64,000 nt of DNA from Agromyces salentinus (GTDB lineage Bacteria; Actinomycetota; Actinomycetes; Actinomycetales; Microbacteriaceae). Shown piece by piece: positions 30,012-49,208 of this stretch; position 1 is the first letter of the stretch, and every line of letters starts with the position of its first letter. The stretch spans positions 186,001 to 250,000 of the forward strand of contig NZ_WBIR01000001.1 in the NCBI RefSeq assembly GCF_009749395.1, in the 5' to 3' direction. The position numbers and the translations under genes were made by a program. A model generated the notes under the pieces. That model was not told where the DNA came from, searched no databases, and saw only the letters and a list, made by a program, of their open reading frames with translations.

Positions 30012-30026
30012 TTGCCGTTCCGGCAA
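30012..30026. promoter_or_regulatory. Putative XRE-cupin operator, copy 1
   Basis: TTGCCGTTCCGGCAA is a perfect palindrome with 6-bp arms. Seven bp after it comes TGCCATTC. The same arrangement (palindrome in the opposite reading, 7 bp, TGCCATTC) is at 49159-49188. It lies just upstream of the -35 box of the gene at 30069. Confidence 0.6.
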
Positions 30027-30032
30027 ACGACG

Positions 30033-30061
30033 TTGCCATTCCACCATGCCGTCGGCACGAT
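30033..30061 (+). promoter_or_regulatory. Promoter of thioredoxin-reductase-like gene
   Basis: TTGCCA (30033-30038) and CACGAT (30056-30061) are 17 bp apart. The expected transcription start is at or next to the ATG at 30069, so the transcript may be leaderless. The gene at 49231 has the same box spacing. Confidence 0.5.
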
Positions 30062-30068
30062 GGGAAGC

Positions 30069-31106
30069 ATGCAGCAGAACTCCTGGGACGTCATCATCGC
30101 CGGCGGCGGCAGCGCCGGCCTCAGCGCCGCGCTCATGCTCGGACGGTCGCGACGGCGCGTGCTCGTCGTCGACGAGGGCCGGCCGCGCAACCGCTTCGCC
30201 GGGCACATGCACGGCGTCATCGGGCGCGACCACACGTCGCCGCTCGACCTGCTCGCCGATGCCCGCGCCGAGCTCGGCCGCTACGACGGCGTCGAGCTGC
30301 GCGAGGGGCGCATCGCCGCGGCATCCGTCATCGAGGACCCTGAGCCGGATGCCGCGGCCGACCGCGCCGACCGCGGCATCGAGATCGTGCTGGGCGACGG
30401 AACCCGGCACCTCGCCCGGCGCCTGCTCGTGGCATCCGGCGTCCGGGATGAACTCCCCGCCATCGCTGGACTCGCCGAACAGTGGGGCCGAAGTGCGTTC
30501 ATCTGCCCGTACTGCGACGGATGGGAGCACCGCGACGAGCGCATCGGCGTGCTCGCGACGAGCGCCATGAACGTGCACCAGGCGCAGCTCATGCGCCAGC
30601 TCTCGCCGGACGTGACGTTCTTCGGCCACGGCATCGAGCTGCCCGGCGCCGACCGGGCGGGGCTGGCCGCACGCGGCATCCGGGTCGAGGAGCGGGCCGT
30701 CGTCGAGGTGCTCGCCGACGCCGAGGGACGACTCACCGGCATCCGCCTCGAGGACGGCACGGAGGTCGCGATCGACGCGCTCTTCGTGGGGCCGCGCCAG
30801 GTGCCGAACGACGACCTGCTGCGCGCCCTCGGCGCCGAGCGCGCCGTACACCCCATGGGCGGGGAGTTCGTCGCCGTCGACCCGATGGGCCGCACGAGCG
30901 TGCCCGGCGTCTGGGGTGCGGGCAACGTCACCGACCCGCGCTCCTCGGTGCCGTTCGCGATGAGCGCGGGCAACGCCGCGGGCGCCGCGATCAACGCGGA
31001 CCTGGTCGCGGCCGAAGTCGCGGCGGCGGTTGCGATGGCGAGCTCGGCGGGCCGACCGGGCCGCCGACGCGGGGACGGACGCGGCAGAACCGTGAACACG
31101 CAGTGA
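30069..31106 (+). CDS. Thioredoxin reductase-like NAD(P)/FAD oxidoreductase
   Basis: A 345-aa flavoprotein: VIIAGGGSAGLSAALMLGRS for FAD, the redox pair C146-P-Y-C149 in FICPYCDGWEH, and GVWGAGNVTDPRSSVPFAMSAG at the C-terminus. It is shorter in the NADPH-binding region than classical TrxB and resembles the reductase half of bifunctional oxidoreductase/methyltransferase proteins known in actinobacteria. An ATG at 30060 is an alternative start. A paralogue is cut by the right edge of the window (63309). Confidence 0.88.
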   Translation: MQQNSWDVIIAGGGSAGLSAALMLGRSRRRVLVVDEGRPRNRFAGHMHGVIGRDHTSPLDLLADARAELGRYDGVELREGRIAAASVIEDPEPDAAADRADRGIEIVLGDGTRHLARRLLVASGVRDELPAIAGLAEQWGRSAFICPYCDGWEHRDERIGVLATSAMNVHQAQLMRQLSPDVTFFGHGIELPGADRAGLAARGIRVEERAVVEVLADAEGRLTGIRLEDGTEVAIDALFVGPRQVPNDDLLRALGAERAVHPMGGEFVAVDPMGRTSVPGVWGAGNVTDPRSSVPFAMSAGNAAGAAINADLVAAEVAAAVAMASSAGRPGRRRGDGRGRTVNTQ

Positions 31107-31157
31107 AACCCCGCGCAAGCCCCGCATGAAGACGCGCCGTGGCCGTATTCTGAACGG

Positions 31158-31889
31158 ATGCTGGTGATCAGCTACAACCTCCGCAAGCATCGCGCGATCT
31201 CCGAACTCGCGGCGCTCGATGAGCGCTACTCGCCGGACGTCGTCTGCCTGCAGGAGTGCGACACCCTCGACCTCGCCGAGCACGTCGGCCGCCTGCGCCT
31301 CGCGCATTCGACGGTGGGCAGCCGGCTCGGCCTCGCGGTGTACTACCGACCCGATCGCATCCACGTGCGCAGCCTCCGTACGGTGGCGCTCAAGAAGTCG
31401 ATGCACGACCGCGTGCTGCGCCCGGCGCACGAGCGCCTGCTCGGCGCCCGCGTGCACGACCTCGAGCACGACCGCGAGGCCATCGTCGCGTCCTTCCACG
31501 CCGCGCCGCTGACCGCGCTCAACTCGCTGCGCCGCCACCAGATCAAGGCCGCCCTCGGCGAGCTGCAACTGCTCGGACCGAACCTGCCGACGCTCATGGT
31601 CGGCGATTACAACTACCCGATCTTCAAGGACAACCTGGCCGAGAAGGTGCGCGAGGCCGGGTACGACCTGACGCTGAGCGACAGCCGCACCTACACGCGG
31701 TACAAGTTCTTCCGCGGGCACTTCGACCTCGCGACCTCGGCCGGCTTCGACATCCGCAAGGTCGAGACCCTGCCCCGCGGGTCGAGCGACCACCTGCCGA
31801 TCCTCGTCGACGCGGTGTACTCCGACACCCAGGCCGGGCACGCATCCGCACACGACGAGCCGCTCGGCGGCACGCCGATCGTCGCCTGA
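31158..31889 (+). CDS. Endonuclease/exonuclease/phosphatase family protein
   Basis: The 243-aa protein has the EEP fold: ISYNLRKHRAISELAALDE, VVCLQECDT (metal-binding E), LMVGDYNYPIF (GDxN) and GSSDHLPIL (catalytic DH). There is no signal peptide, so it acts in the cytosol. The family includes AP-endonucleases, DNases and phosphodiesterases; the exact substrate is not clear. It starts 51 bp downstream of the oxidoreductase gene. Confidence 0.85.
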   Translation: MLVISYNLRKHRAISELAALDERYSPDVVCLQECDTLDLAEHVGRLRLAHSTVGSRLGLAVYYRPDRIHVRSLRTVALKKSMHDRVLRPAHERLLGARVHDLEHDREAIVASFHAAPLTALNSLRRHQIKAALGELQLLGPNLPTLMVGDYNYPIFKDNLAEKVREAGYDLTLSDSRTYTRYKFFRGHFDLATSAGFDIRKVETLPRGSSDHLPILVDAVYSDTQAGHASAHDEPLGGTPIVA

Positions 31890-31908
31890 GCAGTCGCGCC
31901 GCCGGCCG

Positions 31909-32724
31909 TCAGTGCCCGGGCTTGGCGGCCTTCCAGTAGCCGCAGAACACGACGTGCGTCTTCGGCACGCCACGCTCGTTGACGAGGTGACGGCGAGCGC
32001 CGGTCGCGAGCGCCGACTCCCCCGCGGCGAACGCGGTGACGGTGCCGGCCGGGAACTCGAGGCCCTTCACGAACTCGAGGGCCGCGACGCCGGCCTGCTC
32101 GCCGTGGTCACGGACGATCCAGTGCACCGTCACACCGGCGGGCTCGCCGCAGGGCTGGCGGTCCGCGGCATCCGGGATCTCGATGACCGCGTGGCCCCGA
32201 GCGTCGCGCGGCAGGTCCCGCAGGATCCCGGCGACGGCGGGCAGGGCGCTCTCGTCGCCGATGAGCAGGTTCCAGTCGGCGTCGACGGCCTTGTAGCCGC
32301 AGCCCTGGTCGATGAGGCCCACCGAGATGCCGACCGGGAGGGTCTCGGCCCACGGACCGGCGACGCCCTCGTCGCCGTGGACCACGAAGTCGATGTCGAG
32401 CTCGGCCGAGGCGTCGAGCGTGGCGGCACGGAACTCGCGCACCGTGTAGTTGCGGATCACGGGCCGCGTGGCCTTCGGGAGCGTGAGGTACTTGAGGTAC
32501 CCGCCCATGTCGTACTTGTCCGAGAGGTTGTCGAAGCGCGTGTGGTCGGAGGTCGGCACCGCGAGGCGGAACCACTGGTCGAAGCCGATGTGACGCCAGT
32601 CGTCGAGCTCGGGCCCGCTCAGCGTGAGGCGCACGAAGTGCGGGGAGATGCGCTCGGCACGAACGACCTCGGCGGTGACGACGCCGGTGTCGGCGTGGGT
32701 GATCTCGAGGTTGCTGATGGCCAC
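31909..32724 (-). CDS. Siderophore-interacting protein (ferric-siderophore reductase)
   Basis: A 271-aa SIP/ViuB-type flavin reductase. RISPHFVRLTLSGPELDDW and RNYTVREFRAATLDASAELDIDFVVHG form the FAD-binding barrel, and GDESALPAVAGIL is the NAD(P)H-binding start. The C-terminus WKAAKPGH is truncated relative to some members but includes VFCGYWKAA. These proteins reduce ferric siderophores in the cytosol. An IdeR box at 32747-32765 lies just upstream, consistent with iron repression. Confidence 0.92.
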   Translation of the reverse strand: MAISNLEITHADTGVVTAEVVRAERISPHFVRLTLSGPELDDWRHIGFDQWFRLAVPTSDHTRFDNLSDKYDMGGYLKYLTLPKATRPVIRNYTVREFRAATLDASAELDIDFVVHGDEGVAGPWAETLPVGISVGLIDQGCGYKAVDADWNLLIGDESALPAVAGILRDLPRDARGHAVIEIPDAADRQPCGEPAGVTVHWIVRDHGEQAGVAALEFVKGLEFPAGTVTAFAAGESALATGARRHLVNERGVPKTHVVFCGYWKAAKPGH

Positions 32725-32746
32725 GGGGCCTCCGTTGTCGTCGCGA

Positions 32747-32765
32747 TAAGGGCAGCCTCACCTTA
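32747..32765. promoter_or_regulatory. IdeR/DtxR-type iron box upstream of SIP gene
   Basis: On the minus strand the sequence TAAGGTGAGGCTGCCCTTA matches the actinobacterial iron-box consensus TTAGGTTAGGCTAACCTAA at most positions and lies 22 bp upstream of the start codon. Confidence 0.7.
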
Positions 32766-32859
32766 CCTGATCGAGGCGCACGTTGCCGGACCGAGGCATC
32801 CGCCCGGCCATCGACCCGGCCGCCGTCGCCCGATATCGTGACCACCGGAGGGGGAACCG

Positions 32860-33258
32860 ATGCCAGCAGAGAAGCCGACCACCGTCGACGAGTACCTCGC
32901 GACCTTCGAGGGCGAGCCCGCCGAGCGCCTCGCCGCCGTGCGCGCGGCGATCCACGAGGTGCTTCCGGATGCCGAGGAGCGGCTCCGCTACGACATCCCG
33001 GGCATCGCGATCCGAGGCCGCTACTGGCTGCACTTCGCCGGCTGGAAGAAGCACATCGGCCTCTACCCCGTGCCGCACGCCGCCGACGAGGAGCTCGAGG
33101 CGCGCATCGCGCCGTGGCGCGCCGCCAAGGACACCGTGAACCTGCCGTACACCAAGCCGCTGCCGCTCGATCTGGTGCGCGACATCGCGCGGCTCGTGCT
33201 CGAGTTGCACGGCGGGGATGACGACGGCGGGGACGTCGCGCGCGTCGCGCACGGCTGA
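32860..33258 (+). CDS. DUF1801 iron-chaperone-like protein
   Basis: The 132-aa protein has the DUF1801/YdhG fold: TVDEYLATFEGEPAERLAAVRAAIHEVLPDAEERLRYDIPG, YWLHFAGWKKHIGLYPVP and TVNLPYTKPLP. Relatives such as Bacillus YdhG/Fra act as frataxin-like iron chaperones. It is divergent from the iron-regulated SIP gene, which supports a role in iron handling, although no iron box is placed specifically for it. GGAGGGGG precedes the ATG. Confidence 0.88.
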   Translation: MPAEKPTTVDEYLATFEGEPAERLAAVRAAIHEVLPDAEERLRYDIPGIAIRGRYWLHFAGWKKHIGLYPVPHAADEELEARIAPWRAAKDTVNLPYTKPLPLDLVRDIARLVLELHGGDDDGGDVARVAHG

Positions 33259-33300
33259 GCCCGCGCCGTCGGCCGGCGCCGAGCAAGGATCAGATCCGGG

Positions 33301-33801
33301 TCACGAGCCGGAGAATCGGTCGGCCTGCTGACGCACGGCTTCCGAGACGGCGTCGGTGGACCAGGCCCTCACCCGACTGCCCTCGAGCACGCGCGCGAGC
33401 GGCACCCGGCCGAGGAGACGGAGCGGTTCCCAGCCTGCGGCGGGAGCGAGCGCCCCGAGACTCCGATAGTCGTCGATGCGGACCTCGTCCCACGCATGGA
33501 TGACCTCCCCACCGCCGAGACCGAGACCCACATGGCCCCAGTCCCGTCTCGAGCCGAACAGTTCCCCGACGCTCTCGTAGAACACCAGGTCGCCGGGCCC
33601 GGGCTCGCCCGAGGTCCTCCCGGCGTCGTAGAGGCGAGCCGATTCCGCGGCGTCGTCGCCCCCGAAGATCTCAATCCCGTTCCCGCGCTCGATCGCGTCC
33701 TCGACGAACGCCAGACAGCGGGTCGAGTATGCGGAGGAACCCAGGTGCTGCCTCGCCCAGTGGATCGCGTTCCCGGCGATCGCCACGGTGTCGTCATTCA
33801 T
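33301..33801 (-). CDS. NlpC/P60-like cysteine peptidase domain protein
   Basis: A 166-aa protein with a likely papain-like catalytic pair: the Cys in YSTRCLAFVEDAIERGN and the His in DWGHVGLGLGGGEVIHAW, with PGDLVFYES between. This order (C..H) matches NlpC/P60/CHAP-type amidases. There is no secretion signal in the predicted frame, so it may act inside the cell or on imported muropeptides, or the start may be wrong. The start at 33801 is chosen from the family layout. Confidence 0.7.
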   Translation of the reverse strand: MNDDTVAIAGNAIHWARQHLGSSAYSTRCLAFVEDAIERGNGIEIFGGDDAAESARLYDAGRTSGEPGPGDLVFYESVGELFGSRRDWGHVGLGLGGGEVIHAWDEVRIDDYRSLGALAPAAGWEPLRLLGRVPLARVLEGSRVRAWSTDAVSEAVRQQADRFSGS

Positions 33802-33907
33802 CGATGCGAGCCTATCCAGCCGTGACCCCGGGGAGGGAACGGCGGATGCCGCGACAGCTGGGTGCTGCCGCGGCATCCGCGGTGCCCTGGCGGGCGCATG
33901 CGCCGAC

Positions 33908-36574
33908 CTAGCCGAGCGTGAAGGTCCTCGTCGTGGTGTTGCCCGCGACGTCGTGGACGACGAGCGTGTTGACGCCCGCGACCGCGCCGAACATGCCGGG
34001 CCTGACGAAGTTCAGGTCGGACCAGGCGTTGTTCGAGAGGTCCTTGACCGTGCCGTTGAGCTCGATGCGATCGATCCTGCCCGCGTCGTACAGCTTGAAG
34101 CTGACGAGCGAGAACGCCTCGCCCTTCGCGACCGTGTACGCCGCACCGTCCTTGACGGTCACGGTCGGCTTGACCGAGTCGACGGTGAACGCGAAGGTGC
34201 TCGTCCTGGAGATGTTGCCGGCGACGTCCTGCGCGTTGTACTTGACCGTGTACTCGCCCGACGCGAGGGCCACGGTCGCCGTGTGCGATCCGGCCTTCGC
34301 GCCGCCCTCGACCTTGGACTGCGTGCTCTTGACGAGCTTGCCGTCCCGGTAGACGTTCGCGACGATGCGGGCCAGGCCGCGGTCATCGGTCGCGTCGACC
34401 TGCACCGAGAGCTCGCGGAACGGGCCGGATGCCGCGGGCGAGACGAGGGCGACCTCGGGGCGGGTCGTGTCGGGCTCTTCGACGGGCGGCTCGACGCCGG
34501 CCTCGGTGACCCACTTCTCGCCGGCATCCGTCTTGGTGACCGTGAACTCGTCGTAGACCGCGCCCACGGGAAGGTCGGTCGTGACATCCGCCGTCTTCTC
34601 CGCGAGGTAGGAGCGGTAGCGGAGCTGGTCGTTCGAGACGTCGATGACCTGGTAGGTCGTGACGCCGGCACCGCGCAGCACCTGGGTGGCGCCGTTGTTC
34701 GTCCAGACGTTCTTCTCGTCGGTCTCGAGCTCGTAGTGCTTGGCGCCGGAGTTGGAGACGATGTAGACCGGGCCGTCGGTGACGCCGGGCGTCTCGGTGA
34801 CGTCGTCATCGTTGTAGCCGCGTGCGTAGGTGTGGTCGTGGCCCATCATGACGAGGTCGATGTCGTGCTTCTGGAACACGGGCACCCAGAACTCGCGCAA
34901 CACGGGCTCATTGCGACCGGCCGACGTGGAGTACACCGGCTGGTGGAAGGTCACGACGTTCCACTTCGACGGGCTCTGCTCGAGCACGTGGTCGAGCCAG
35001 GCGGCCTGGAACTGGGTCCAGAGCGAGGCGACCTTCGTCGACGGGCAGTCGGCCGTCCCGCAGGCCGGGAGGCCGTCGGGCGTGAGGAACGTGGTGTCGC
35101 GCGTCGCGTTCAGCGTGATGAAGCGCACGCCCTGGTAGTCGGTGAAGTACACCGTCTCCGAGGCGAACTGGGTCCAGTGGGCGAAGTACGCGGCGTACTG
35201 CCTCGCAGCGTCGGTGTCGCCGTCGGCGAGGTCGGCGAGGGCACCGACGGTCTCGGTCGTCGGGTTGTTGTGCGGGTACTCGAAGTTCGCCTTCCACGAC
35301 TTCAGGAGCTTGTCGCCCGAGTACTCGTGGTTGCCGGGCGCAGCCATCACGTTCGTCGTGGCCGCCGACGTCTGCATCCCCTTGAACCAGTTGACCCACT
35401 GCGTCTCGTTGCTCGCCGTGTCGATGAGGTCGCCGGCGTGGACCGAGCCGATCGAGTCCGGAGCGGATGCCTCGGCCATGGCCACGACCTTCGGCCACGT
35501 GGTGTCCAAGCCGATCTGCGCGTCGCCGTAGTACACGAACTGGAACTCGTCGTCGGCCGGGTCGGCGGTGGTGAACTCGGTCCACGGGCTCCAGCCCGTG
35601 TCCGTGCCGACGCGGTAGGTGTACGCGGTGCCCGCGGTGAGGCCGTCGACGGTGGCCGAGAAGTGCTGGAGCGGATTCCCGTTCACGGCACCGGCCGCGT
35701 ACGCGTCGATCGAGCGGATGTCGCCGCCCGCGGTCGGGCGGATCTCGACGCGCCCCGTGGTCTGCGAGGCGTCGCCCGCGAGCCACGAGAACGACTGCGA
35801 CGTCTCGGGCGTCGCGGTGGGCGTGAGGATCACGCGCGACGGCGGTGCGTCGACGGGCTGACCCGGGTCGGTCGCCTCGACGAGGCGGATGGAGGGGATG
35901 TCGAGGTAGATGTCGCTGCTCGTGGCGCGGTCCTGGTAGAGCGCGACGGCGACCGTGTTGACGCCGTCGACGAGCACGTCGCCGGCGGCCTCGAAGCTCG
36001 CCGAGGCGGGGTCGGAGGCGCCGGACCCGGCGTACTGCACGTTCGTCGTGCCGGTGACCCGCTCGTCGCTGAGCCCGGCGACCTTCTCGCCGTTGATCCA
36101 GACGATGGCGCCGTCGTCGTAGACGACGTCGCCGAGCACCTGGCCGACCTGGTCGGCGACGCCGGCCTCGAGCGTGAAGCTCGTGCGGAAGAAGAAGGTG
36201 GGCACGTCGGGCGCGGCCACGCCGTCAAGGTACTGGTTCAGCAGGGTCTGCGGCATGCGCGGGCCGACGGCGGCGAGCTTGCCGGCCTTGGCGCCGAAGC
36301 TGCCGGCGGCGGACTTCCACGCCGAGTCGTCGAATGCCCCCGTCGTCCACGCCCGGAGGTTCGCGTCGCCCTTCACGGGATCGGTGCCGTCGTCGAGGTA
36401 GCGCCAGGTGGTCGCGCTGGTCACGACCGGCGCGGTGGGCACCTCGGCTGCGGCGTCGTCGACCGCGAACGCCGCCGCGGGTGCCGCGATCGCGCCGCCG
36501 ACGAGGGCGAGCATGAGCGCGGATGCCGCGGCTCGCCTCCCCCGTCGCGTCGGTGTCGTCTTCGTCATCGTCAT
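33908..36574 (-). CDS. Secreted metallophosphoesterase (purple acid phosphatase-like)
   Basis: An 888-aa secreted protein. Signal peptide (TTPTRRGRRAAASALMLAL...AAPAAAFA), an N-terminal beta domain (about 50-240), a fibronectin-like purple acid phosphatase domain (about 255-350), a calcineurin-like domain with YYGDAQIG, HAGDLIDTASN, APGNHEYSGD, VVTFHQPVY and MMGHDHTYARGY, and Ig-like repeats at the C-terminus. It probably releases phosphate outside the cell. Of several tandem ATGs the one at 36574 is spaced best from GAAGGA. It ends near the NlpC/P60 gene on the same strand. Confidence 0.9.
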   Translation of the reverse strand: MTMTKTTPTRRGRRAAASALMLALVGGAIAAPAAAFAVDDAAAEVPTAPVVTSATTWRYLDDGTDPVKGDANLRAWTTGAFDDSAWKSAAGSFGAKAGKLAAVGPRMPQTLLNQYLDGVAAPDVPTFFFRTSFTLEAGVADQVGQVLGDVVYDDGAIVWINGEKVAGLSDERVTGTTNVQYAGSGASDPASASFEAAGDVLVDGVNTVAVALYQDRATSSDIYLDIPSIRLVEATDPGQPVDAPPSRVILTPTATPETSQSFSWLAGDASQTTGRVEIRPTAGGDIRSIDAYAAGAVNGNPLQHFSATVDGLTAGTAYTYRVGTDTGWSPWTEFTTADPADDEFQFVYYGDAQIGLDTTWPKVVAMAEASAPDSIGSVHAGDLIDTASNETQWVNWFKGMQTSAATTNVMAAPGNHEYSGDKLLKSWKANFEYPHNNPTTETVGALADLADGDTDAARQYAAYFAHWTQFASETVYFTDYQGVRFITLNATRDTTFLTPDGLPACGTADCPSTKVASLWTQFQAAWLDHVLEQSPSKWNVVTFHQPVYSTSAGRNEPVLREFWVPVFQKHDIDLVMMGHDHTYARGYNDDDVTETPGVTDGPVYIVSNSGAKHYELETDEKNVWTNNGATQVLRGAGVTTYQVIDVSNDQLRYRSYLAEKTADVTTDLPVGAVYDEFTVTKTDAGEKWVTEAGVEPPVEEPDTTRPEVALVSPAASGPFRELSVQVDATDDRGLARIVANVYRDGKLVKSTQSKVEGGAKAGSHTATVALASGEYTVKYNAQDVAGNISRTSTFAFTVDSVKPTVTVKDGAAYTVAKGEAFSLVSFKLYDAGRIDRIELNGTVKDLSNNAWSDLNFVRPGMFGAVAGVNTLVVHDVAGNTTTRTFTLG

Positions 36575-36869
36575 CGTCATTCCTTCGTCGCTGCGGAGGG
36601 CGCGCGTGCGGCGTCGCCCGCTCGTCCGCGAGGAGCACCACCTGCCGCCGGAGGCCGTGCTCCATCTCATCCGGGACGGATGACCTTCCCCTTGCCCCGT
36701 CGTGGCGGCCCGGTGAACCTGCGGTGACGCCGCTCGTCACGTCGGGCTGCTACGCTCCGGACCCGCCCGAGGCGAGGCCGGTGCCGGCTCGGCACCTCGG
36801 CCGATCGGCCGATGCGGTTCGGCCCCGACGGCCGATGTCCGGGAACGCGCCGCCCGCGAGCATCGAGTC

Positions 36870-37571
36870 ATGACCCAGATCGAACGCCCGTCCCGGCGCG
36901 GAGTCGGCGCCAACCGCCCCGCCTCACGACCGTCCCGCCGCACCGGATGGCTCGCCCCGGTCGGCCTCATCGCGCTCTCCCTCGTGCCGATGGCCGCGGG
37001 CGCGAGCCGGCTCGCCCAGCTCGGGACCGGCGCGAGCGTCACCGCCGAGAACGCCCGGTTCTTCGACTCGCCCGTACCGGTCATCGCGCACATCGTCGGC
37101 TCGTCGGCGTTCCTCCTGCTCGGCGCACTGCAGTTCGCCCCCTCACTGCGCCGGTACGCCTGGCATCGCCGGTCGGGTCGCATCGTCGCGATCGCCGGGC
37201 TCGTGTCCGCGGCATCCGGACTCTGGATGGCGGTCGCGTACGACCTGCCCGCGAACAGCGGGCTCGGGCTCATGGTCATCCGCGTGGTGCTCGCACCCGC
37301 GATGGCGGCGGCCATCGTCGCCGCGTTCCTGGCGATCCGGCGAGGGGATGTCGCCACGCACAGCGCGTGGATGACGCGCGCCTACGCGATCGGCCTCGCC
37401 GCCGGGACGCAGGTGCTCACGCTCATGCCGTGGGTGCTCCTCGTGGGCGAGCCCGGCGAGCTGGAGTACACCGTGCTCATGGCGCTCGGCTGGGCGATCA
37501 ACCTCGTGGTCGCGGAGCTCGTCATCCGGCGACGGGCCCGGCGGAGCGGCCGCGGCCGAGCCCTATCATGA
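36870..37571 (+). CDS. DUF2306 membrane protein in two-component operon
   Basis: The 233-aa protein has about six hydrophobic segments and the DUF2306 motif (FLLLGALQFAPSLRRYAWHRRSGRIVA and THSAWMTRAYAIGLAAGTQVL). The function is unknown. It lies 4 bp upstream of a histidine kinase gene with which it shares an operon, so it may sense a signal or be a target. Its start (ATG 36870) follows a weak GAGTC site. Confidence 0.82.
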   Translation: MTQIERPSRRGVGANRPASRPSRRTGWLAPVGLIALSLVPMAAGASRLAQLGTGASVTAENARFFDSPVPVIAHIVGSSAFLLLGALQFAPSLRRYAWHRRSGRIVAIAGLVSAASGLWMAVAYDLPANSGLGLMVIRVVLAPAMAAAIVAAFLAIRRGDVATHSAWMTRAYAIGLAAGTQVLTLMPWVLLVGEPGELEYTVLMALGWAINLVVAELVIRRRARRSGRGRALS

Positions 37572-37575
37572 GGGC

Positions 37576-39425: not shown

Positions 39426-39428
39426 GAG

Positions 39429-42641: not shown

Positions 42642-42751
42642 GTCGTGCTTCGCGCGACGCCGCCGGGTGGGCACTCCTGCCCGTCGCCCACCCGACGGAG
42701 GCCGCGGTAGCCTGACCGGCGAGCCGGGAGTTCCGGCCGAGAGGAGCTCCC

Positions 42752-43312
42752 TTGTCCACGAACACCGCATCCCGTCGGCGACGCCTCGTCGGCACCTCCA
42801 CGGCGATCGCCGCCTCGATCGCGCTCGTGCTCGGCACGCCGTCGATCGCCCAGGCCGCACCGCTCGCGCAGGGGCTGTACAAGGCACCGTGGGAGTCGTG
42901 CGTCTTCGAGGTTGACGCGGCCTCCAATGGCGGAGGCGTGAGCTACGTCTCGGCAGACCGGTGGAAGGCGCTCGGGTATCCGGCGGTCACCGCGAGCCAG
43001 CAGTTCGCCCTCGAGAAGTCGTACATCTTCAAGAACGGCACGTCGTCGCACGAGATCTTCGCCGATACGTCGCGGTTCACGAGCACCCCGTGCGGCGTGC
43101 ACAAGCTCACGTTCGCCGAGTGGCAGGCGATGGGTTCGCCGACTCCCGTCGCGATGAACCCGCAGTTCTACAAGCTCAACGGCAGCGCGACGATCTACGG
43201 CCGCATGTTCACGCTCGGTTCGACCTACGTGCCCTCGCTGCGCGCGATCACCTACGCCGAATGGACCGAGCTCGGGTTCCCGACACCGCAGGTCGTCTCG
43301 AAGCTGCCCTGA
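42752..43312 (+). CDS. Secreted protein with threefold sequence repeat
   Basis: The 186-aa protein starts with TTG (GAGGAG six nt upstream) and has a signal peptide ending IAQAAP. After it come three degenerate segments, each ending in a similar block: YVSADRWKALGYPAV, KLTFAEWQAMGSPTPVA and AITYAEWTELGFPTPQVV, preceded by beta-rich stretches (YIFKNGTSSHEIF, YKLNGSATIYGRMF). I do not recognise a family, but the repeats suggest a cell-wall or sugar-binding module. It ends next to a heptamer array and a strong terminator. Confidence 0.75.
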   Translation: MSTNTASRRRRLVGTSTAIAASIALVLGTPSIAQAAPLAQGLYKAPWESCVFEVDAASNGGGVSYVSADRWKALGYPAVTASQQFALEKSYIFKNGTSSHEIFADTSRFTSTPCGVHKLTFAEWQAMGSPTPVAMNPQFYKLNGSATIYGRMFTLGSTYVPSLRAITYAEWTELGFPTPQVVSKLP

Positions 43313-43364
43313 TCGAGTACCCACTGACTGGGAGCGAGCGGATGACGCGGCCGCTCGCCGCGCC

Positions 43365-43399
43365 GATCGGCGATCGGCGATCGGCGATCGGCGATCGGC
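43365..43399. repeat. Tandem heptamer array (GATCGGC x5)
   Basis: Five contiguous perfect 7-bp units lie directly before the terminator stem. Confidence 0.85.
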
Positions 43400-43433
43400 G
43401 AAGGCCCGGCCTCTCTCGGGGCCGGGCCTTCGC
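43398..43433. terminator. Strong hairpin terminator between convergent genes
   Basis: GCGAAGGCCCGGCC (43398-43411) pairs with GGCCGGGCCTTCGC (43420-43433) over 14 bp with an 8-nt loop. It separates the secreted repeat protein gene from the convergent fosX gene. A related GAAGGCCCGG hairpin is at 54540-54573. Confidence 0.8.
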
Positions 43434-43449
43434 TCCGAAATCCAGCGCT

Positions 43450-43489
43450 ACATCGCCACATCGCCACATCGCCACATCGCCACATCGCC
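43450..43489. repeat. Tandem octamer array (ACATCGCC x5)
   Basis: Five contiguous perfect units of ACATCGCC. The unit differs by one base from the ACTTCGCN array at 50110-50301. Confidence 0.88.
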
Positions 43490-43506
43490 ACAGGATTCTG
43501 GCAGCG

Positions 43507-43926
43507 TCACCCCTGCGCGTACGCCACGAGTCGTTCGCGCAGCGAGCCGGCGTGCAGCTCGAAGAGGTGCCCGTCGTCATCATGGAAGTAGATCGACTCC
43601 CCCTCGCCCGCGACCCGTGACCGCGGCGGCCGGATGTCGAGGCCGAGCCCGGTGATCGTCTCGCGGAGCCGTGGCAGGTCTGCCTGCTCGACCTGGAAGG
43701 CGACATGGTTGTAGCTGCGCGGCAGTCCGCCGTCGCCGAGCATGATCGCCACCCAGGTCCCCCCCGTCCCCTCGCCGACGAGGAAGAACCGCTCCTCCGA
43801 GAGCGAGAAGGTGTCGCGGCCGCTGTCGTACACCCGGACGGCACCGAGCACGCTCGTGAGCATGTCCTCCATGCGGTCGAGGTCCCGCACGACGAAGGTC
43901 ACATGGCTGAGTCCGCTGCTGGTCAC
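43507..43926 (-). CDS. fosX: FosX-type fosfomycin resistance hydrolase
   Basis: The 139-aa protein aligns along its length with FosX: GLSHVTFVVRDLDRME, TFSLSEERFFLVG, RSYNHVAFQVE, RVAGEGESIYFHDDDGH and LFELHAGSLRERLVAY. By comparison with Listeria FosX, H8, H74 and E123 should bind manganese and E45 corresponds to its general base E44, which hydrates fosfomycin without a thiol. Length matches. The GTG at 43926 fits the family start; no ribosome-binding site precedes it, and a 30-bp repeat array lies upstream in the same open frame. Confidence 0.92.
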   Translation of the reverse strand: MTSSGLSHVTFVVRDLDRMEDMLTSVLGAVRVYDSGRDTFSLSEERFFLVGEGTGGTWVAIMLGDGGLPRSYNHVAFQVEQADLPRLRETITGLGLDIRPPRSRVAGEGESIYFHDDDGHLFELHAGSLRERLVAYAQG

Positions 43927-43980
43927 CGGGACAGGGTACCGGGCTGTGTCGGGCGGTACCCGGCACGACCGGGCGGTACC

Positions 43981-44090
43981 GGGCACGACCGGGCACGACC
44001 TGGCGGGACGGGGCACGACCGGGCACGACCTGGCGGGACGGGGCACGACCGGGCACGACCTGGCGGGACGGGGCACGACCGGGCGGGACG
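43981..44090. repeat. 30-bp tandem array upstream of fosX
   Basis: Three exact 30-bp units (43981-44010, 44011-44040, 44041-44070), each built of GGGCACGACC, GGGCACGACC and TGGCGGGACG, plus a partial fourth. The unit length keeps the fosX frame open to an in-frame start at 44076. Confidence 0.9.
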
Positions 44091-44110
44091 GGCGGGGGCG
44101 GGTCTGTGCG

Positions 44111-44746
44111 TCAGCGCGCCGACGGCTCCCAGGCGAACCCGTCGGGGTCCGTGAAGACCCCGCCGTCCGAGTTGATCCGGATGCGGTGCGAGCCCGTGCC
44201 CTCGGGCGCGACGCCGGCCTGCTTGGCCAGGGCCCGGCGCTTGTAGAGGCCGAGGCCGATGGGGCTCGATCCGGTCGCGAAGTCGACGTAGCTGCCGAAG
44301 CTCTTGCCGACCGCGAGCCCGCGGTCCGTGTAGAACCGCTTGCTCGCCGACACGTCCTCGGCGCCGAGCAGCAGCACGAGGTTCTCGTACTCGCGCGTGG
44401 CCGGACCGGTGTCCTTCCTGGCCGAGGTCGCGAGGGTCCAGATCGAGCCGTCGGGCGCCTGCACGACGCCGCCGATGCCCCAGAGGGACTTCTCGACGGG
44501 CTTCAGCACCGTCGCTCCCGCGGCGATCGCGGCCTGGTACAGCGCGTGCACGTTCGCCGGCTGCGCGACCACGATCGACATCGTGAATCCGCGGAAGCCG
44601 CTCGTCGCGGCATCCGCTGCGGTGGTGCGCACCTGGCGGTCGAGGCTGAACGCCTCCCGGTAGAACCGGGCGGCGGCCTCGGGGTCTGCGGCCTCGATCG
44701 TGATCGAGTCGATGGTCGTGATGGTGGTGAGGTCTGTGGTTTCCAT
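44111..44746 (-). CDS. VOC family protein (two-module)
   Basis: A 211-aa protein with two VOC modules: DSITIEAADPEAAARFYREAF...RGFTMSIVVAQPANVHALYQAAIAAG and YENLVLLLGAEDVSASKRFYTDRGL...GVFTDPDGFAWEPS. The layout matches glyoxalases annotated in many soil actinobacteria. The ligand is unknown. It precedes fosX on the same strand, separated by the 30-bp array. Confidence 0.85.
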   Translation of the reverse strand: METTDLTTITTIDSITIEAADPEAAARFYREAFSLDRQVRTTAADAATSGFRGFTMSIVVAQPANVHALYQAAIAAGATVLKPVEKSLWGIGGVVQAPDGSIWTLATSARKDTGPATREYENLVLLLGAEDVSASKRFYTDRGLAVGKSFGSYVDFATGSSPIGLGLYKRRALAKQAGVAPEGTGSHRIRINSDGGVFTDPDGFAWEPSAR

Positions 44747-44828
44747 GACTGAGAAAGTACGCCCGGGCGTGCGGGGGCGGCTTCTCGATTCCTGCTCGAT
44801 CGGCGTCGCCCGACCCGGCCGGGTCACG

Positions 44829-44880
44829 AACACAGGAAGACACGCCGCCCCGTGCCCGAAAACAGGCAGCGGGACGGCGT
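44829..44880. repeat. Dispersed intergenic repeat, family A copy 2
   Basis: AACACAGGAAGACACGCCGC, 13 nt, then ACAGGCAGCGG: the same order and spacing as at 984-1026. Single copy, between the VOC gene and a secreted protein gene. Confidence 0.6.
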
Positions 44881-44958
44881 GGCGGCTCCGACGTTCCTGC
44901 GCTCGAGCGAGCGAGCGCGCGCGGCGGGCGCACGTCGCTGCGCCCGCCGCGGCCCCGG

Positions 44959-45606
44959 TCACTCGAAGAGCGAGAGGGTGAGCGTCGAGGTGTAGCTTCC
45001 GGGCGCGACGTCGCTCGGGGTGCGGAGGAACAGGTCGGCGTCGGCGGTCCAGGCGCCGTCGGGCGCGACATCCTCGGAGTCCCACGCGGAGGCGAAGAGC
45101 TCCTGGTCGACGAGGCCGACGTTGTTGCCTCCCTGCGTGGGCGCGTCGATCACGGTCACGACCTCGTCGCCGACCGCGACGAGGCCGGAGTCGCCCCCGT
45201 CGATGAGGTTCGGCCGCCAGCCGAGGTGGCCGGCACCGATCGGCTCCTGGCCGGCGTCGCCGACGAAGTCGCTCGTCGTGCCGAGCACGTACCAGGCCGC
45301 CGCGTCGCCGATCTCGTCGGACGTGCGCGTGTCGGTGACGGTCACCGTCGGCAGTTGCCCGGTGAACTCGCGCACGGTGGGCTCGCCCGACTCGCCCTCG
45401 GTCAGCGCGACACCGGAGCCGGCGACGCTCATCGCGAGCACGCCGGGCTCGGTCACGGGCGCGACCTCGACGCTGACGTCGACGGTGCTGTCGGCGCCGA
45501 TCGACTCGTCCGCGTTGGCGGCGGCCGCGGCACCGACCGCGAGCAGCATCGCGCCGACGGTCACCGCCGTCGCGCGGGCCGCAGCGGTCTTCGTGATGCT
45601 CTTCAT
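44959..45606 (-). CDS. Secreted beta-rich protein, WxL-domain-like
   Basis: A 215-aa protein with a signal peptide ending AAAAANADE. The mature part is acidic and beta-rich: PGVLAMSVAGSGVALTEG, TVTVTDTRTSDEIGDAAAWYV and a C-terminal GSYTSTLTLSLFE. The overall pattern fits the WxL-like surface proteins of actinobacteria, which attach to the cell wall. No catalytic motif is seen. The 373 bp upstream to the DUF2188 gene hold only a CCCC-TGACA-GGGG mini-hairpin (45837-45849). Confidence 0.65.
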   Translation of the reverse strand: MKSITKTAAARATAVTVGAMLLAVGAAAAANADESIGADSTVDVSVEVAPVTEPGVLAMSVAGSGVALTEGESGEPTVREFTGQLPTVTVTDTRTSDEIGDAAAWYVLGTTSDFVGDAGQEPIGAGHLGWRPNLIDGGDSGLVAVGDEVVTVIDAPTQGGNNVGLVDQELFASAWDSEDVAPDGAWTADADLFLRTPSDVAPGSYTSTLTLSLFE

Positions 45607-45979
45607 CTGGGTTCTCTCTTCTGTCTCGTGGGCGAGCCGTTCCGGTTCCGGCGCACAGGGCGGCCGAAGCTCGCGATGCGGTGCCGGCGCAACGCTCGCG
45701 ACGCTACGCACGGGCCTGCTCGCCTCGGCCGACGGTTCCTCGCCGACTGGCGAACGTCGCGTGAACTCCGGCAGCAGTCGTTCGGACAAGGCGGGCGGGT
45801 TCGAATGGTGAACGATGGCCGAGAGTCCGCTCGACCCCCCTGACAGGGGCTTCCGAGGGGCGTACCGTGAATGGTCACGACCGGCTGGTCATGGCATGGG
45901 CGCGATTCCGTACGCGGCACGCGAGACATGCGAACCGGCACGACCGACCATCGAGACGAACGAGATGTGAGGGCCGCAC

Positions 45980-46195
45980 ATGGCTGAGGGCGACGTCGAG
46001 ACCCACTCGAACCGTGGGCAGTGGGAGAACCGGGTCGAGGGGCATCCGGAGCTCTCGCAGAGCTACGCGAGCCGCGACGAGGCGATCGAGGCCGGCCGCA
46101 GGTTCGCCGAGGAACGCGGCACGGCGCACACCGTCGTCGACAGCGACCCGACCGGCGTCATCACCGATCCAGCGCCGACGGACGTGCCCGACTGA
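45980..46195 (+). CDS. DUF2188 protein
   Basis: The 71-aa protein has the DUF2188 layout: VETHSNRGQWENRVEGHPELSQSYASRDEAIEAGRRFAEERGTAHTVVDSD. Such proteins are small, of unknown function, and often found in stress clusters. The stop codon overlaps the DUF427 start (TGATG), so the two are coupled. Confidence 0.8.
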   Translation: MAEGDVETHSNRGQWENRVEGHPELSQSYASRDEAIEAGRRFAEERGTAHTVVDSDPTGVITDPAPTDVPD

Positions 46196-46689
46196 TGCAG
46201 CCGACCCCGCTGCCGGCCGCGCCCGGCCAGGAGTCCGTCTGGGACTACCCGCGCCCGCCGCGCCTCGAGGTCGTCGACGCCCGGGTCACCATCACCCTGG
46301 ACGGGCAGGTCATCGCGAGCACGCGCGACGTGATGCGCGTGCTGGAGACGAGTCATCCGCCCGTCTACTACGTGCCCATCGAGGAGTTCGTGCCGGGCAC
46401 GGTCGTGCCGACCGGCGGTTCCTCGTTCTGCGAGTTCAAGGGCAGCGCGAGGTACTACGACCTGCTCTCGGGGCCCACGAGGGCGGCCCGCGCGGCGTGG
46501 GAGTATCCATCGCCCGCGCCGGGCTACGAGCCGCTCGCCGGACGCGTCGCGGTCTACGCGGGCCTCGTCGATGCGTGCACCGTCGACGGCGAACGGGTCG
46601 AACCGCAGCCCGGCGGCTTCTACGGCGGCTGGATCACGTCGAACGTCGTCGGCCCGTTCAAGGGCGGTCCGGGCTCGATGGGCTGGTAG
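46195..46689 (+). CDS. DUF427 protein
   Basis: The 164-aa protein is a DUF427 member: ESVWDYPRPPRLEVVDARVTITLDGQVIASTRDVMRVLETSHPPVYYVP, EFKGSARYYDL and the C-terminal [18 protein letters not shown]. The family is widespread in soil bacteria and has no assigned reaction. It is coupled to the DUF2188 gene and overlaps the catalase gene end by 32 bp in convergent orientation. Confidence 0.88.
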   Translation: MQPTPLPAAPGQESVWDYPRPPRLEVVDARVTITLDGQVIASTRDVMRVLETSHPPVYYVPIEEFVPGTVVPTGGSSFCEFKGSARYYDLLSGPTRAARAAWEYPSPAPGYEPLAGRVAVYAGLVDACTVDGERVEPQPGGFYGGWITSNVVGPFKGGPGSMGW

Positions 46690-48928
46690 GCCGGGCGGGC
46701 GCGGGCGTCACGGCGGGTTCGCCGCCGAGTTCGAGTCGCTCCCAGACGCGGTGCCGCGGCAGCAGGCCGAGCAGGCCGGCCGCGACGACCTGCAGTGCGC
46801 CGGTCAGCACGCCGGGCGCCTGCGTGTCGAGCCCGGAAGCCTCGACCCCGGCCACCGCCTCGTCGACGACGCCGATCGCCTTGCCGTGCCGGAACGCCTC
46901 GGCCAGCAGTTGCGCCGAGCGAGGATCAGCGGATGCCGCGAGCACGAGCACCCCGTCGAGCTCGACGCTCGTCGCGGTGTGGAAGCTGCGCTGCACCGGG
47001 ATCTCGCCGAGGCGCCCGCCCGTCGGTGCGATCACGATCGGCAGCGCGCCGGCGTCGGCGATCGCCTCGCGAACGCCCTCGAGCGCCGCGACGTCGGTCG
47101 CGGCATCCGCCACGATGCCGACCATGCGACCGGCGATCGGCCACTCCTCGCCGACCATGCGCAGCGCCGGGCTCGGGTCGAGGTCGAGCACCTCGACGTC
47201 GGCATCGGCGTCGGGCACTGGCACGCCGAGCGCGGCGGCGACCGTCGCGCACAGGTCGGCGTCGATGCTCGCGAGGGCACGCAGCTGGCGCAGCTTGATG
47301 TTCTCCTCGAAGCACTTGCCGAGCTCGAACGCGTAGGCGTCGGCGACGTGCTGCTGCTCGATCGGGGTCAGCGAGCGGTAGAAGAGCCGCACCTGCGAGA
47401 AGTGGTCGTCGAAGCTCGCAGGCTTCGCCCGCTCCTTGACGGACTCGGCGACGGGCGCGGGCACCTCGATGAAGGCTCCCTCTGCGGCACCGGCCTCGAA
47501 GGGGCATCCGCCGTCGAGCGAGTTCGGGTGGTACGGCGCGACGCCGGAGTGCACCGCGGTCTGGTGCATGCCGTCGCGGAGCATGTCGTTCACGTCGGCG
47601 TGCGGCCGGTTGATCGGCAGTTGCGCGAAGTTCGGCCCGCCGAGCCGCGAGATCTGGGTGTCGAGGTACGAGAACAGGCGGCCCTGCAGCAGCGGGTCGT
47701 TCGTGACGTCGATGCCGGGCACGAGGTGGCCCGGGTGGAAGGCCACCTGCTCGGTCTCGGCGAAGTAGTTCGACGGGTTGGCGTCGAGCGTCATCGTGCC
47801 GATGACCTGCAGCGGGCAGAGCTCCTCGGGCACGATCTTCGTCGGGTCGAGCAGGTCGATGCCCTCGAAGGTCTCGTCCGGGGTGTCCGGCATGACCTGC
47901 AGCGCGAGGTCCCACTGCGGGTGCGCGCCGGCCTCGATCGCGTCCGCGAGGTCGCGGCGGTGGAAGTCGGGGTCCTTGCCGCCGAGCAGCTGCGCCTCCT
48001 CCCACGTGAGCCCGTGCGTGCCGAGCCTCGGCCGCCAGTGGATCTTCACGAGCGAGGTCTCCCCCGCCTCGTTCTCGAAGCGGAACGTGTGTACCCCGAA
48101 GCCCTGCATCATGCGGTACGAGCGGGGGATGCCGCGGTCGGACATGTTCCAGATCGTGTGGTGCTGCGCCTCGGTGTGCAGCGACACGAAGTCCCAGAAG
48201 GTGTCGTGCGCGGACTGCGCCTGAGGGATCTCGCGGTCGGGATGCGGCTTGCCGGCGTGGATGACGTCGGGGAACTTGATCGCGTCCTGGATGAAGAACA
48301 CCGGGATGTTGTTCGCGACGAGGTCGTAGACGCCCTCCTGCGTGTAGAACTTCGTGGCGAAGCCTCGCGTGTCGCGCACGGTGTCGGCCGAGCCGCGCGA
48401 TCCGAGCACGGTCGAGAACCGCGTGAACACGCGCGTGCGCACCCCCGCCCGCAGGAATGCGGCCTTCGTGATGCCCTCGGCCGCGCCGTTCGCCTCGAAG
48501 ACGCCGTGCGCGGCCGCGCCGCGGGCGTGCACGACGCGCTCGGGGATGCGTTCGTGGTCGAAGTGCGTGATCTTCTCGCGCAGGTGGTGGTCCTGGAGCA
48601 GCACGGGTCCGCGCGGACCCGCCTTCAGCGAGTGGTCGGTGTCGGGCAGGCGAGCGCCCTGCGCGGTGGTGAGGTACTGCCCCTGCTGGGCGACGGCCTG
48701 CGGGGGCAGGTCGGTGGCCGCGCCGGTCGGCGTGCGGCGGTCGGGCCCGGTCTGGTCCGGCTTCGGCGGCAGCGGATGCCGCGGGGTCGTCGGTTCCTCG
48801 AGTGCGGGCGGCTCGGGCGCCGGGGCACCCGGAAGGAAGACCTCCCCCGAGGCCTGCGTCCCGCCGGTGCGGTTCTCGTCGGTGCGGTTCTTCGTGCGCT
48901 TCTCGTCGGAATCTCGCGTGTCGCCCAT
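46658..48928 (-). CDS. katE: Large-subunit catalase (KatE/HPII type)
   Basis: The 756-aa protein is a clade 2 catalase. Heme and catalytic motifs: [12 protein letters not shown] (catalytic His134), [15 protein letters not shown] (Asn near 206), [14 protein letters not shown] and the heme-ligand tyrosine in [14 protein letters not shown]-terminal flavodoxin/GATase-like domain starts near residue 600. It degrades hydrogen peroxide, and its length matches E. coli HPII. Start: ATG at 48928 has GGGGAGG five nt upstream; a TTG at 48949 is another candidate. It is convergent with the DUF427 gene. Confidence 0.95.
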
Positions 48929-49065
48929 GTCGGCCTCCCCGTCGCTCAACGTCGTCGTCGTGGTGTGCTTGGCAGGCTAGGGGCTGGGCGCGCGCCCGGG
49001 GAACGGGCTTGACTCCGCCCCGCGGTTCGACCAGACTCGCGCCTCCCGCGCTCCGGCGGCGATCG

Positions 49066-49142
49066 GCCGGCGGTCGAGTCCAGCCGGCGGTCGAGCTCAG
49101 CCGGCGGTCGAGTAGGGAGCGCCAGCGACCGTATCGAGACCC
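49066..49142. repeat. Family R repeat
   Basis: Three GCCGGCGGTCGAG words are followed by a half unit GTCGAGTAGGGAGCGCCAGCGACCGTATCGAGACC. It lies just upstream of the operator of the methyltransferase gene. Confidence 0.75.
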
Positions 49143-49158
49143 CGGCACCCACCCGAAC

Positions 49159-49173
49159 TTGCCGGAACGGCAA
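49159..49173. promoter_or_regulatory. Putative XRE-cupin operator, copy 2
   Basis: TTGCCGGAACGGCAA is the exact reverse complement of the palindrome at 30012-30026, and is followed after the same 7 bp by TGCCATTC. See the shared-operator finding. Confidence 0.6.
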
Positions 49174-49179
49174 GCGGGC

Positions 49180-49208
49180 ATGCCATTCGCGCGCGGCATC
49201 CGTACGCT
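49180..49208 (+). promoter_or_regulatory. Promoter of methyltransferase gene
   Basis: ATGCCA (49180-49185) and TACGCT (49203-49208) are 17 bp apart, identical in spacing to the TTGCCA/CACGAT promoter of the gene at 30069. A GAAAGGAACCCC site precedes the ATG at 49231. Confidence 0.5.

What the first reader, a model, noticed from the sequence alone, without database searches (positions are those of the whole stretch)
30012..49208. Shared operator and promoter for a split reductase/methyltransferase pair
The palindrome TTGCCGTTCCGGCAA (30012-30026) upstream of the thioredoxin-reductase-like gene and its reverse complement TTGCCGGAACGGCAA (49159-49173) upstream of the methyltransferase gene are each followed by exactly 7 bp and TGCCATTC, and then by a promoter with identical geometry (-35 TTGCCA/ATGCCA, 17 bp, -10 CACGAT/TACGCT). 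The first site also lies in the region shared with the divergent XRE-cupin regulator. Reductase and methyltransferase domains of these types are known fused in one protein in some actinobacteria. I infer a two-gene regulon of the XRE-cupin protein, producing a pair that probably works on one substrate (reductive methylation or detoxification). This link between separated genes seems undescribed.
Basis: partly seen in the sequence, partly recalled or inferred. Interest (0 to 1): 0.8.

Follow-up and report, generated by a model that had tools for sequence, protein, structure and literature searches.

The report
Shared switch for dithiol-handling enzymes
Two distant genes, one like the enzyme that closes the sulfur-sulfur bond of the antibiotic holomycin and one a methyltransferase, share a regulator-binding DNA site that recurs in front of the same kinds of genes across many actinobacteria, pointing to a dedicated way of handling reactive dithiol compounds and to candidates for a missing holomycin-methylating enzyme.

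Summary
TTGCCGNNNCGGCAA occurs only at these two sites in the 4.23-Mb genome. The operator (at most 1 mismatch) precedes both an oxidoreductase with divergent XRE-cupin gene and a separate methyltransferase gene in 20 family genomes of 14 genera. A gene-blind scan for palindrome + 6 bp + TTGCCR (80 loci listed, capped) put 41 of 43 actinobacterial hits at the oxidoreductase, a methyltransferase or the XRE-cupin gene, and 0 of 37 others. The bare palindrome is less specific (9 of 29 family loci). The oxidoreductase is closest to the holomycin dithiol oxidase HlmI, not to a reductase. A genome with a holomycin-type cluster (HlmI 98% identical) has the XRE-cupin gene and a 1-mismatch operator beside hlmI, and operators before two methyltransferases. 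Best reading: an XRE-cupin regulon that closes dithiols to disulfides or S-methylates them; the methyltransferases are candidates for the undiscovered holomycin S-methyltransferase. Shared control is strongly supported by comparative genomics; binding, ligand and substrate are inferred. The pair is not obligate: two relatives lack the methyltransferase.

The parts
29284..29988 (-). XRE-family regulator with C-terminal cupin domain (HTH_3 + Cupin_2); proposed sensor and binder of the operator (start codon assumed at 29988)
   Evidence: (Pfam)
30012..30026 (.). operator 1, palindrome TTGCCGTTCCGGCAA
30033..30038 (+). -35 element TTGCCA, 6 bp after the palindrome; TTGCC, TTGTC or TTGCT in many relatives
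30056..30061 (+). -10-like element CACGAT (yAnnnT in many relatives); start codon 30069 lies 7 nt further on, consistent with a leaderless mRNA (inference)
30069..31106 (+). Pyr_redox_2 flavoprotein with CPYCDGWE motif, HlmI/DepH/GliT-like; proposed dithiol oxidase (alternative start 30060)
49159..49173 (.). operator 2, palindrome TTGCCGGAACGGCAA
49180..49185 (+). -35 element ATGCCA of the methyltransferase gene
49203..49208 (+). -10-like element TACGCT of the methyltransferase gene
49231..49938 (+). class I SAM-dependent methyltransferase (family MT1 of this report), histidine-rich N-terminus (6 His in first 35 residues); proposed S-methyltransferase
63297..64000 (-). paralogous oxidoreductase (continues beyond the window to C12:250217) with its own divergent XRE-cupin gene and 1-mismatch operator outside the window

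Best explanation
A small actinobacterial regulon. A dimer of the XRE-cupin protein binds the palindrome TTGCCRNNNYGGCAA, which lies 6 bp upstream of the -35 element of its targets and, at the oxidoreductase, just upstream of its own start codon, so that it probably also controls itself. Its cupin domain senses a small molecule, probably a reactive dithiol or disulfide compound or the stress that it causes. The targets give two ways to neutralise such a dithiol: the HlmI-like flavoprotein closes it to the disulfide, and the methyltransferase caps the thiols by S-methylation. The two activities may be one fused protein, neighbouring genes, or distant genes that keep the same operator, as in this window. 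Shown by sequence: the sites, their conservation, gene content, the association with the XRE-cupin gene. Inferred: binding by that protein, direction of control, ligand, substrate, S-methylation. My odds: shared control about 0.93; dithiol handling about 0.6.
For: Only 2 exact sites in 4.23 Mb, both here. Family: site with at most 1 mismatch in front of 41 of 62 XRE-flanked oxidoreductase loci (shuffled mean 0.35, max 3 in 200) and 26 of 63 separate methyltransferase loci, 14 exact (shuffled means 0.33 and 0.01). 20 of 25 genomes with a site-bearing separate methyltransferase also have a site at XRE/oxidoreductase, against 6 of 35 with a site-less one (p 1.4e-6; 14 genera). XRE-cupin also found divergent from methyltransferase genes (MT1: L364, L376, L425; second family: L352, L366). 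Oxidoreductase frames of 501-588 aa that include the methyltransferase in 11 of 87 loci. Oxidoreductase best PDB match 4ntd, then 3fbs, DepH, 4fk1, GliT; C..C.G.E in 86 of 87. Methyltransferase model (pLDDT 87) closest to TehB and to 4nec, an echinomycin enzyme converting a disulfide to a thioacetal. In G469 operator and regulator sit at hlmI inside a holomycin-type cluster and operators at methyltransferases elsewhere.
Against: No binding or expression data. The bare exact palindrome also stands elsewhere: 20 of 29 family loci (one per genome) are not at system genes, and in nine genomes chosen through an operator, of 8 further exact sites 1 is firmly at MT1, 2 possibly at the second methyltransferase, 4 at none and 1 was not seen. 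21 of 62 XRE-flanked loci have no site within 1 mismatch (many show a more degenerate version by eye, two a different palindrome), and 5 of 25 loci without the XRE gene do have one. 37 of 63 separate methyltransferase loci have no site. The pair is not obligate: the named relative Agromyces mediolanus (G178) has XRE, oxidoreductase and operator but no methyltransferase match better than E 3.4e-6; G079 of the window's genus lacks it too (best 7e-7). The strict 27-bp pattern was in only 1 of 396 genomes sampled over the phylum, the own one. The methyltransferase fold is generic; substrate cannot be read from it.
Confidence: 0.65

Rival explanations
1. The regulon is real but serves metalloid or metal stress (tellurite/selenite-like substrates reduced by the flavoprotein and methylated to volatile forms), as TehB-like enzymes do.
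For: Best Foldseek matches of the methyltransferase are TehB structures; tellurite methyltransferase models appear among the HMM hits, far below cut-off; a second methyltransferase family under the operator has histidine-rich N-termini, 5-12 His in the first 35 residues in 10 of 10.
Against: The flavoprotein is closer to dithiol oxidases (4ntd 227 bits, DepH 168, GliT 111) than to mercuric reductase (34 bits) or to the first plain thioredoxin reductases after 4ntd and 4fk1 (62 bits); operator and regulator occur inside a holomycin-type cluster. TehB matches are at 19-22% identity.
Confidence: 0.15
2. The regulon belongs to natural-product tailoring: the two enzymes finish an own secondary metabolite rather than detoxify a foreign or accumulated one.
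For: HlmI, DepH and GliT act in biosynthesis (PMC3826145, PMC11317636, passages); 4nec is a biosynthetic methyltransferase (title); the G469 hlmI lies in a biosynthetic cluster.
Against: Weak: in the window and in the separate-gene genomes the two genes are not in one cluster, but I did not search the neighbourhoods for biosynthetic genes, and family loci were seen with 1.5-kb flanks only.
Confidence: 0.15
3. Another regulator, not the adjacent XRE-cupin protein, owns the operator.
For: 5 of 25 oxidoreductase loci without the XRE gene have a site; binding untested.
Against: Strong gene-to-site association in the family and in 28 genomes chosen through methyltransferase sites; the site also lies at XRE-cupin genes without the other genes nearby (L384, L440).
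Confidence: 0.06
4. Chance resemblance of two palindromes in a G+C-rich genome.
For: One-mismatch variants occur elsewhere in this genome and bare exact palindromes at other genes in relatives.
Confidence: 0.01

Closest known systems
HlmI dithiol oxidase and S-methylation backup in Streptomyces clavuligerus (holomycin)
   Same: HlmI is the best PDB sequence match (4ntd; the name HlmI for 4ntd is recalled) of the window oxidoreductase; loss of hlmI leads to mono- and di-S-methylated products (PMC3826145, passages).
   Different: No shared operator, XRE-cupin regulon or dedicated methyltransferase is described in the passages I read; the methylating enzyme 'remains to be discovered' (PMC10500201, passages). 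A regulator gene hlmM is listed for the cluster (PMC3992018, passages); whether it is the XRE-cupin gene seen here I could not tell.
GliT (oxidase) and GtmA (bis-thiomethyltransferase) of Aspergillus fumigatus
   Same: Two-pronged handling of one dithiol by oxidation and S-methylation (PMC5356443, passages), with the methyltransferase not encoded in the cluster (PMC10500201, passages).
   Different: Fungal; GtmA also dampens biosynthesis; no operator-based bacterial regulon; GliT is more distant in sequence (111 bits).
DnoP (PA4170) of Pseudomonas aeruginosa
   Same: Dithiol oxidase of a bacterium that meets gliotoxin; induced by it and protective against ETP and dithiolopyrrolone compounds (PMC11317636, passages).
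   Different: Induced through zinc starvation, DepH group, no methyltransferase partner reported in the passages read.
XRE-cupin regulators such as PuuR
   Same: HTH_3 plus Cupin_2 architecture; window protein hits the PuuR model at 30.8 bits.
   Different: Far below the PuuR cut-off of 211 bits; other targets (recalled).

Membership tests
HlmI/DepH/GliT dithiol oxidases | Sequence kinship closer to HlmI/DepH/GliT than to plain thioredoxin reductases | tested here: met
   4ntd 227 bits, DepH 168, GliT 111; 4fk1 ('putative thioredoxin reductase') 129; next entries named thioredoxin reductase 62 and below
HlmI/DepH/GliT dithiol oxidases | Redox-active CxxC motif | tested here: met
   CPYCDGWE in the window protein; C..C.G.E in 86 of 87 family proteins
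HlmI/DepH/GliT dithiol oxidases | Oxidation of a natural-product dithiol with O2 or NADP+ | not testable with these tools
   needs enzyme assay
Dithiol S-methyltransferase (as GtmA) | Class I SAM-dependent methyltransferase fold | tested here: met
Dithiol S-methyltransferase (as GtmA) | Transfer of methyl to a thiol substrate | not testable with these tools
   PDB sequence hits include thiol methyltransferase 1, MitM, Rv0560c: mixed substrates
XRE-cupin regulon with a common operator | Site conserved at regulator and target genes across species | tested here: met
XRE-cupin regulon with a common operator | Regulator binds the site | not testable with these tools
   needs gel shift or ChIP
PuuR | Score above curated cut-off | tested here: not met
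   30.8 of 211 bits

The most novel reading that the evidence does not exclude
Actinobacteria carry a dedicated, widespread sensing and detoxification regulon for dithiol antibiotics (dithiolopyrrolones and similar), run by an XRE-cupin sensor, in which a dithiol oxidase and one of two methyltransferase families are co-induced; holomycin producers have captured the regulator and oxidase into the cluster, and the operator-bearing methyltransferases (MT1 or the histidine-tailed MT2) are the undiscovered holomycin S-methyltransferase, with the histidine tail taking over the zinc that the dithiol chelates.
Probability: 0.3. Interest if true: 0.88.

Novelty: new variant of a known kind. Interest (0 to 1): 0.74.

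Why it matters
It links scattered genes of unknown role by a shared operator, turns a generic 'thioredoxin-reductase-like' and a generic 'methyltransferase' into one testable pathway, and names concrete candidates for an enzyme that a 2023 review calls undiscovered (the one that bis-thiomethylates reduced holomycin; PMC10500201, passages). It also suggests how soil bacteria may sense and survive dithiol antibiotics.

Tried and rejected
Chance palindromes: rejected. A broad regulator with many targets: rejected for the extended element, open for the bare palindrome: 61 of 150 family genomes have an exact one, and of the 29 loci held outside the own genome (one per genome) 9 are at system genes and 20 are not. 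In nine genomes chosen for an operator at oxidoreductase or XRE there are 17 exact sites; 9 are the ones used for choosing; of the other 8, 1 is at MT1, 2 are possibly at the second methyltransferase family (371 and 459 nt away), 4 are at none, 1 had no locus. In nine genomes with HlmI-like enzymes the looser pattern (2 mismatches) finds about as many sites as its reversed control; of 30 loci held, 11 are at system genes (5 of the 9 genomes have such a site at a methyltransferase) and a twelfth (L417) near an XRE-cupin gene. Catalase as a third partner: the window methyltransferase is divergent from a catalase gene, but the other 156 family loci and the 80 named loci do not show it (family flanks only 1.5 kb), so rejected. 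Histidine-rich tail as a hallmark: true for the second family (10 of 10), not for MT1 (0-5 in 18 named ones; family with-site mean 2.8, n 21, against 1.7, n 19, p 0.14). Strict 27-bp pattern over the phylum: 1 of 396, uninformative. 3-mismatch pattern search: no better than control. Mutual exclusion of fused and separate forms: not claimed, since of 17 genomes with adjacent or fused genes a separate methyltransferase locus was looked at in 1 only (G122).

Rows left out: oxidoreductase loci were limited to hits of about 181 bits or more in the listing (87 loci, 77 genomes, second copies included). 70 methyltransferase loci were taken from the listing: those next to a fetched oxidoreductase and several weaker hits (below about 85 bits, such as G046 and G084) were not fetched; 7 of the 70 that also hold the oxidoreductase were left out of the 63 tested. 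One of 29 handles was not held, and one of the 28 genomes (L282) was chosen through a methyltransferase that already stands beside an XRE-cupin gene. In the 80 named loci one Atopobiaceae MAG (L232, an actinobacterium by phylum) was counted among the 37 others; it has no match.

Literature: 8 searches (listings and starts of abstracts seen) and passages of PMC3826145, PMC5356443, PMC10500201, PMC11317636, PMC3992018, PMC6856088 and PMC5702194 gave no description of this operator or regulon. Only open-licence papers are held, and two key holomycin papers could not be read, so prior description elsewhere is possible, including of the regulator gene beside hlmI.
Full report
OBSERVATION. In the whole 4,229,103-base genome the pattern TTGCCGNNNCGGCAA is found at these two places and nowhere else; the reversed control is absent. 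With R/Y allowed at the inner positions and one mismatch there are ten more sites (39 per strand for the control), one of which lies in front of a second XRE-cupin/oxidoreductase pair just beyond the window end.

PROTEINS. The regulator has an HTH_3 and a Cupin_2 domain. The oxidoreductase carries CPYCDGWE and matches in the PDB, in order, 4ntd (227 bits; recalled to be HlmI of Streptomyces clavuligerus), 3fbs, DepH (4nte, 4jn9), 4fk1 (putative thioredoxin reductase, 129 bits) and GliT (4ntc, 111 bits); further entries named thioredoxin reductase follow at 62 bits and below. The C..C.G.E motif is present in 86 of 87 family proteins. The methyltransferase is a class I SAM enzyme. Its AlphaFold model (mean pLDDT 87.3, under 50 only in the N-terminal tail) is closest in Foldseek to TehB, to 4nec (title: conversion of a disulfide bond into a thioacetal group during echinomycin biosynthesis), to Slr1183 and to the M. 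tuberculosis heterocyclic toxin methyltransferase: compatible with thiol chemistry but not proof.

FAMILY TEST. In 150 genomes of the family I took 87 oxidoreductase loci and 70 methyltransferase loci. Of 62 oxidoreductase loci with a divergent XRE-cupin gene, 41 have a TTGCCN5GGCAA site with at most one mismatch in the 260 bases upstream, 22 exact; of 25 without the gene, 5 and 2 (Fisher p 1.2e-4 and 0.009). Dinucleotide shuffles of the 62 give a mean of 0.35, at most 3. Of 63 separate methyltransferase loci, 26 have a site, 14 exact; shuffles give means of 0.33 and 0.01. By genome, 20 of 25 with a site at a separate methyltransferase also have one at XRE/oxidoreductase, against 6 of 35 whose separate methyltransferase has none (p 1.4e-6); the 20 belong to 14 genera (genus labels). 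Relatedness of genomes is not corrected for in these p-values. The window methyltransferase and its four closest relatives (300-472 bits) have a site, 3 of 5 exact. Loci that fail the one-mismatch rule often show a weaker version by eye; two show a different palindrome, TTGCGTCATACGCAA.

MOTIF-FIRST TEST. Of 43 actinobacterial loci, 19 have the window-type methyltransferase (MT1) directly downstream, 10 a second methyltransferase family (MT2), 6 the oxidoreductase, 4 oxidoreductase followed by or fused to MT1; one more (L277) is the start of an XRE-cupin gene and one (L286) the oxidoreductase cut by the locus end. L247 and L308 are unrelated. None of the 37 other loci has any of these genes. 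Organisms by record title include Streptomyces, Nocardia, Rhodococcus, Actinomadura, Micromonospora, Paractinoplanes, Pseudonocardia, Microbispora, Cellulomonas and Agromyces.

HOW SPECIFIC. The -35-like half that follows is needed for this specificity. The bare exact palindrome occurs in 61 of 150 family genomes, and of 29 loci held outside the own genome 9 are at oxidoreductase, methyltransferase or XRE-cupin genes and 20 are not. In nine genomes chosen through an operator, 8 further exact sites exist: 1 at MT1, 2 possibly at MT2, 4 at none, 1 unseen.

REGULATOR TEST. In 28 genomes chosen because an operator stands before a methyltransferase not next to the oxidoreductase (in one of them, L282, next to an XRE-cupin gene), 28 have an XRE-cupin homologue; 22 of 30 such loci have the site upstream of it, 17 are divergent from the oxidoreductase, two from MT1 and two from MT2.

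SITE ANATOMY. Aligned sites show the palindrome, 6 bp, often TTGCC/TTGTC/TTGCT as -35, then yAnnnT about 17 bp on, and often the start codon some 7 nt later; at family methyltransferases the -35 half is weaker. The palindrome centre lies near -50 of the oxidoreductase start (inference from a leaderless start), and the palindrome 23 bp in front of the assumed XRE start codon, where it would hit that gene's own promoter. This suggests autoregulation; repression or activation of the targets is open.

MT2. The second family is about 300 aa, a generic class I methyltransferase by Pfam and PDB (one protein tested), and has 5-12 histidines in its first 35 residues in 10 of 10 proteins. The window MT1 has 6; 18 named MT1 proteins have 0-5. 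Zinc binding is a guess, made more interesting by reports that reduced holomycin and gliotoxin chelate zinc (PMC10500201, passages) and that gliotoxin disturbs zinc balance in Pseudomonas (PMC11317636, passages).

LINK TO HOLOMYCIN. A search of 392 Streptomyces genomes with the 4ntd letters found one, G469, at 302 of 307 identities: a very near relative of S. clavuligerus, or that species. Around it lie a thioesterase, an MFS transporter, a globin, a condensation-AMP-PCP NRPS and a GMC oxidoreductase, which fits the holomycin cluster as described in PMC3826145 (passages). Beside this hlmI is a divergent XRE-cupin gene, with TTGCGGAAACGGCAA, one mismatch, between them. Elsewhere in the genome an MT2 gene has the exact operator, an MT1 gene, itself divergent from another XRE-cupin gene, a one-mismatch operator, and a second oxidoreductase and a further XRE-cupin gene one-mismatch operators. 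In all, of 10 sites that the loose pattern finds in G469 (its control: 7), these 5 are at system genes; two others precede other frames (by eye a hydrolase and unrelated ones) and three were not looked at, save that the locus of one (L433) shows no system gene. Four more of the nine genomes with HlmI-like enzymes (67-78% identity) have such a site at MT1 or MT2. Loss of hlmI leads to mono- and di-S-methylated products (PMC3826145), and the responsible enzyme is said to remain undiscovered (PMC10500201). The operator-bearing MT2 and MT1 are therefore candidates; nothing here shows that they act on holomycin.

MECHANISM. Best reading: an XRE-cupin sensor controls two ways to disarm a dithiol, oxidation to the disulfide and S-methylation, the same logic as GliT and GtmA in Aspergillus (PMC5356443, passages). 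Weak points: no binding data; the pair is not obligate, since Agromyces mediolanus (G178) and G079 of the window's genus lack the methyltransferase and 37 of 63 separate methyltransferase loci lack the site; generic methyltransferase folds do not tell the substrate.

NOVELTY. Eight literature searches found no account of the operator or regulon, but only open-licence papers are held. Parts are of known kinds (dithiol oxidases, XRE-cupin regulators, S-methyltransferases); the combination and the shared operator appear new.

Noticed in passing
window 63297-64000 and beyond (C12:249297-250334): A second XRE-cupin/oxidoreductase pair, 33 kb from the first, with a weaker operator TTGCTGAGGTGGCAA followed by a TTGCC element.
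   Followed up: partly
window 46658-48949: Long catalase gene divergent from the methyltransferase gene, with the operator in the shared upstream region; not seen next to the relatives' genes.
   Followed up: yes
window 50106-50303: Array of about 25 copies of the 8-base unit CGCCACTT just downstream of the methyltransferase gene, and other short-unit arrays (43446-43492, 43958-44095, 49949-50028) in the same region.
   Followed up: no
window 50897-51072: Two copies (97% matches) of a 90-base unit beginning TCCGGCGGTCGAGTAGG; units that look alike by eye stand at 8987-9182 and 49066-49113.
   Followed up: no
L091 (G132) and L153 (G004): A different palindrome, TTGCGTCATACGCAA, between XRE-cupin and oxidoreductase genes, suggesting a regulator subfamily with another specificity.
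   Followed up: no
L229, L231, L239, L243, L251, L252, L278, L281, L282, L292 (downstream of the operator): Strongly histidine-rich N-termini (5-12 His in 35 residues) on operator-bearing methyltransferases of Streptomyces, Nocardia and Sinosporangium.
   Followed up: partly
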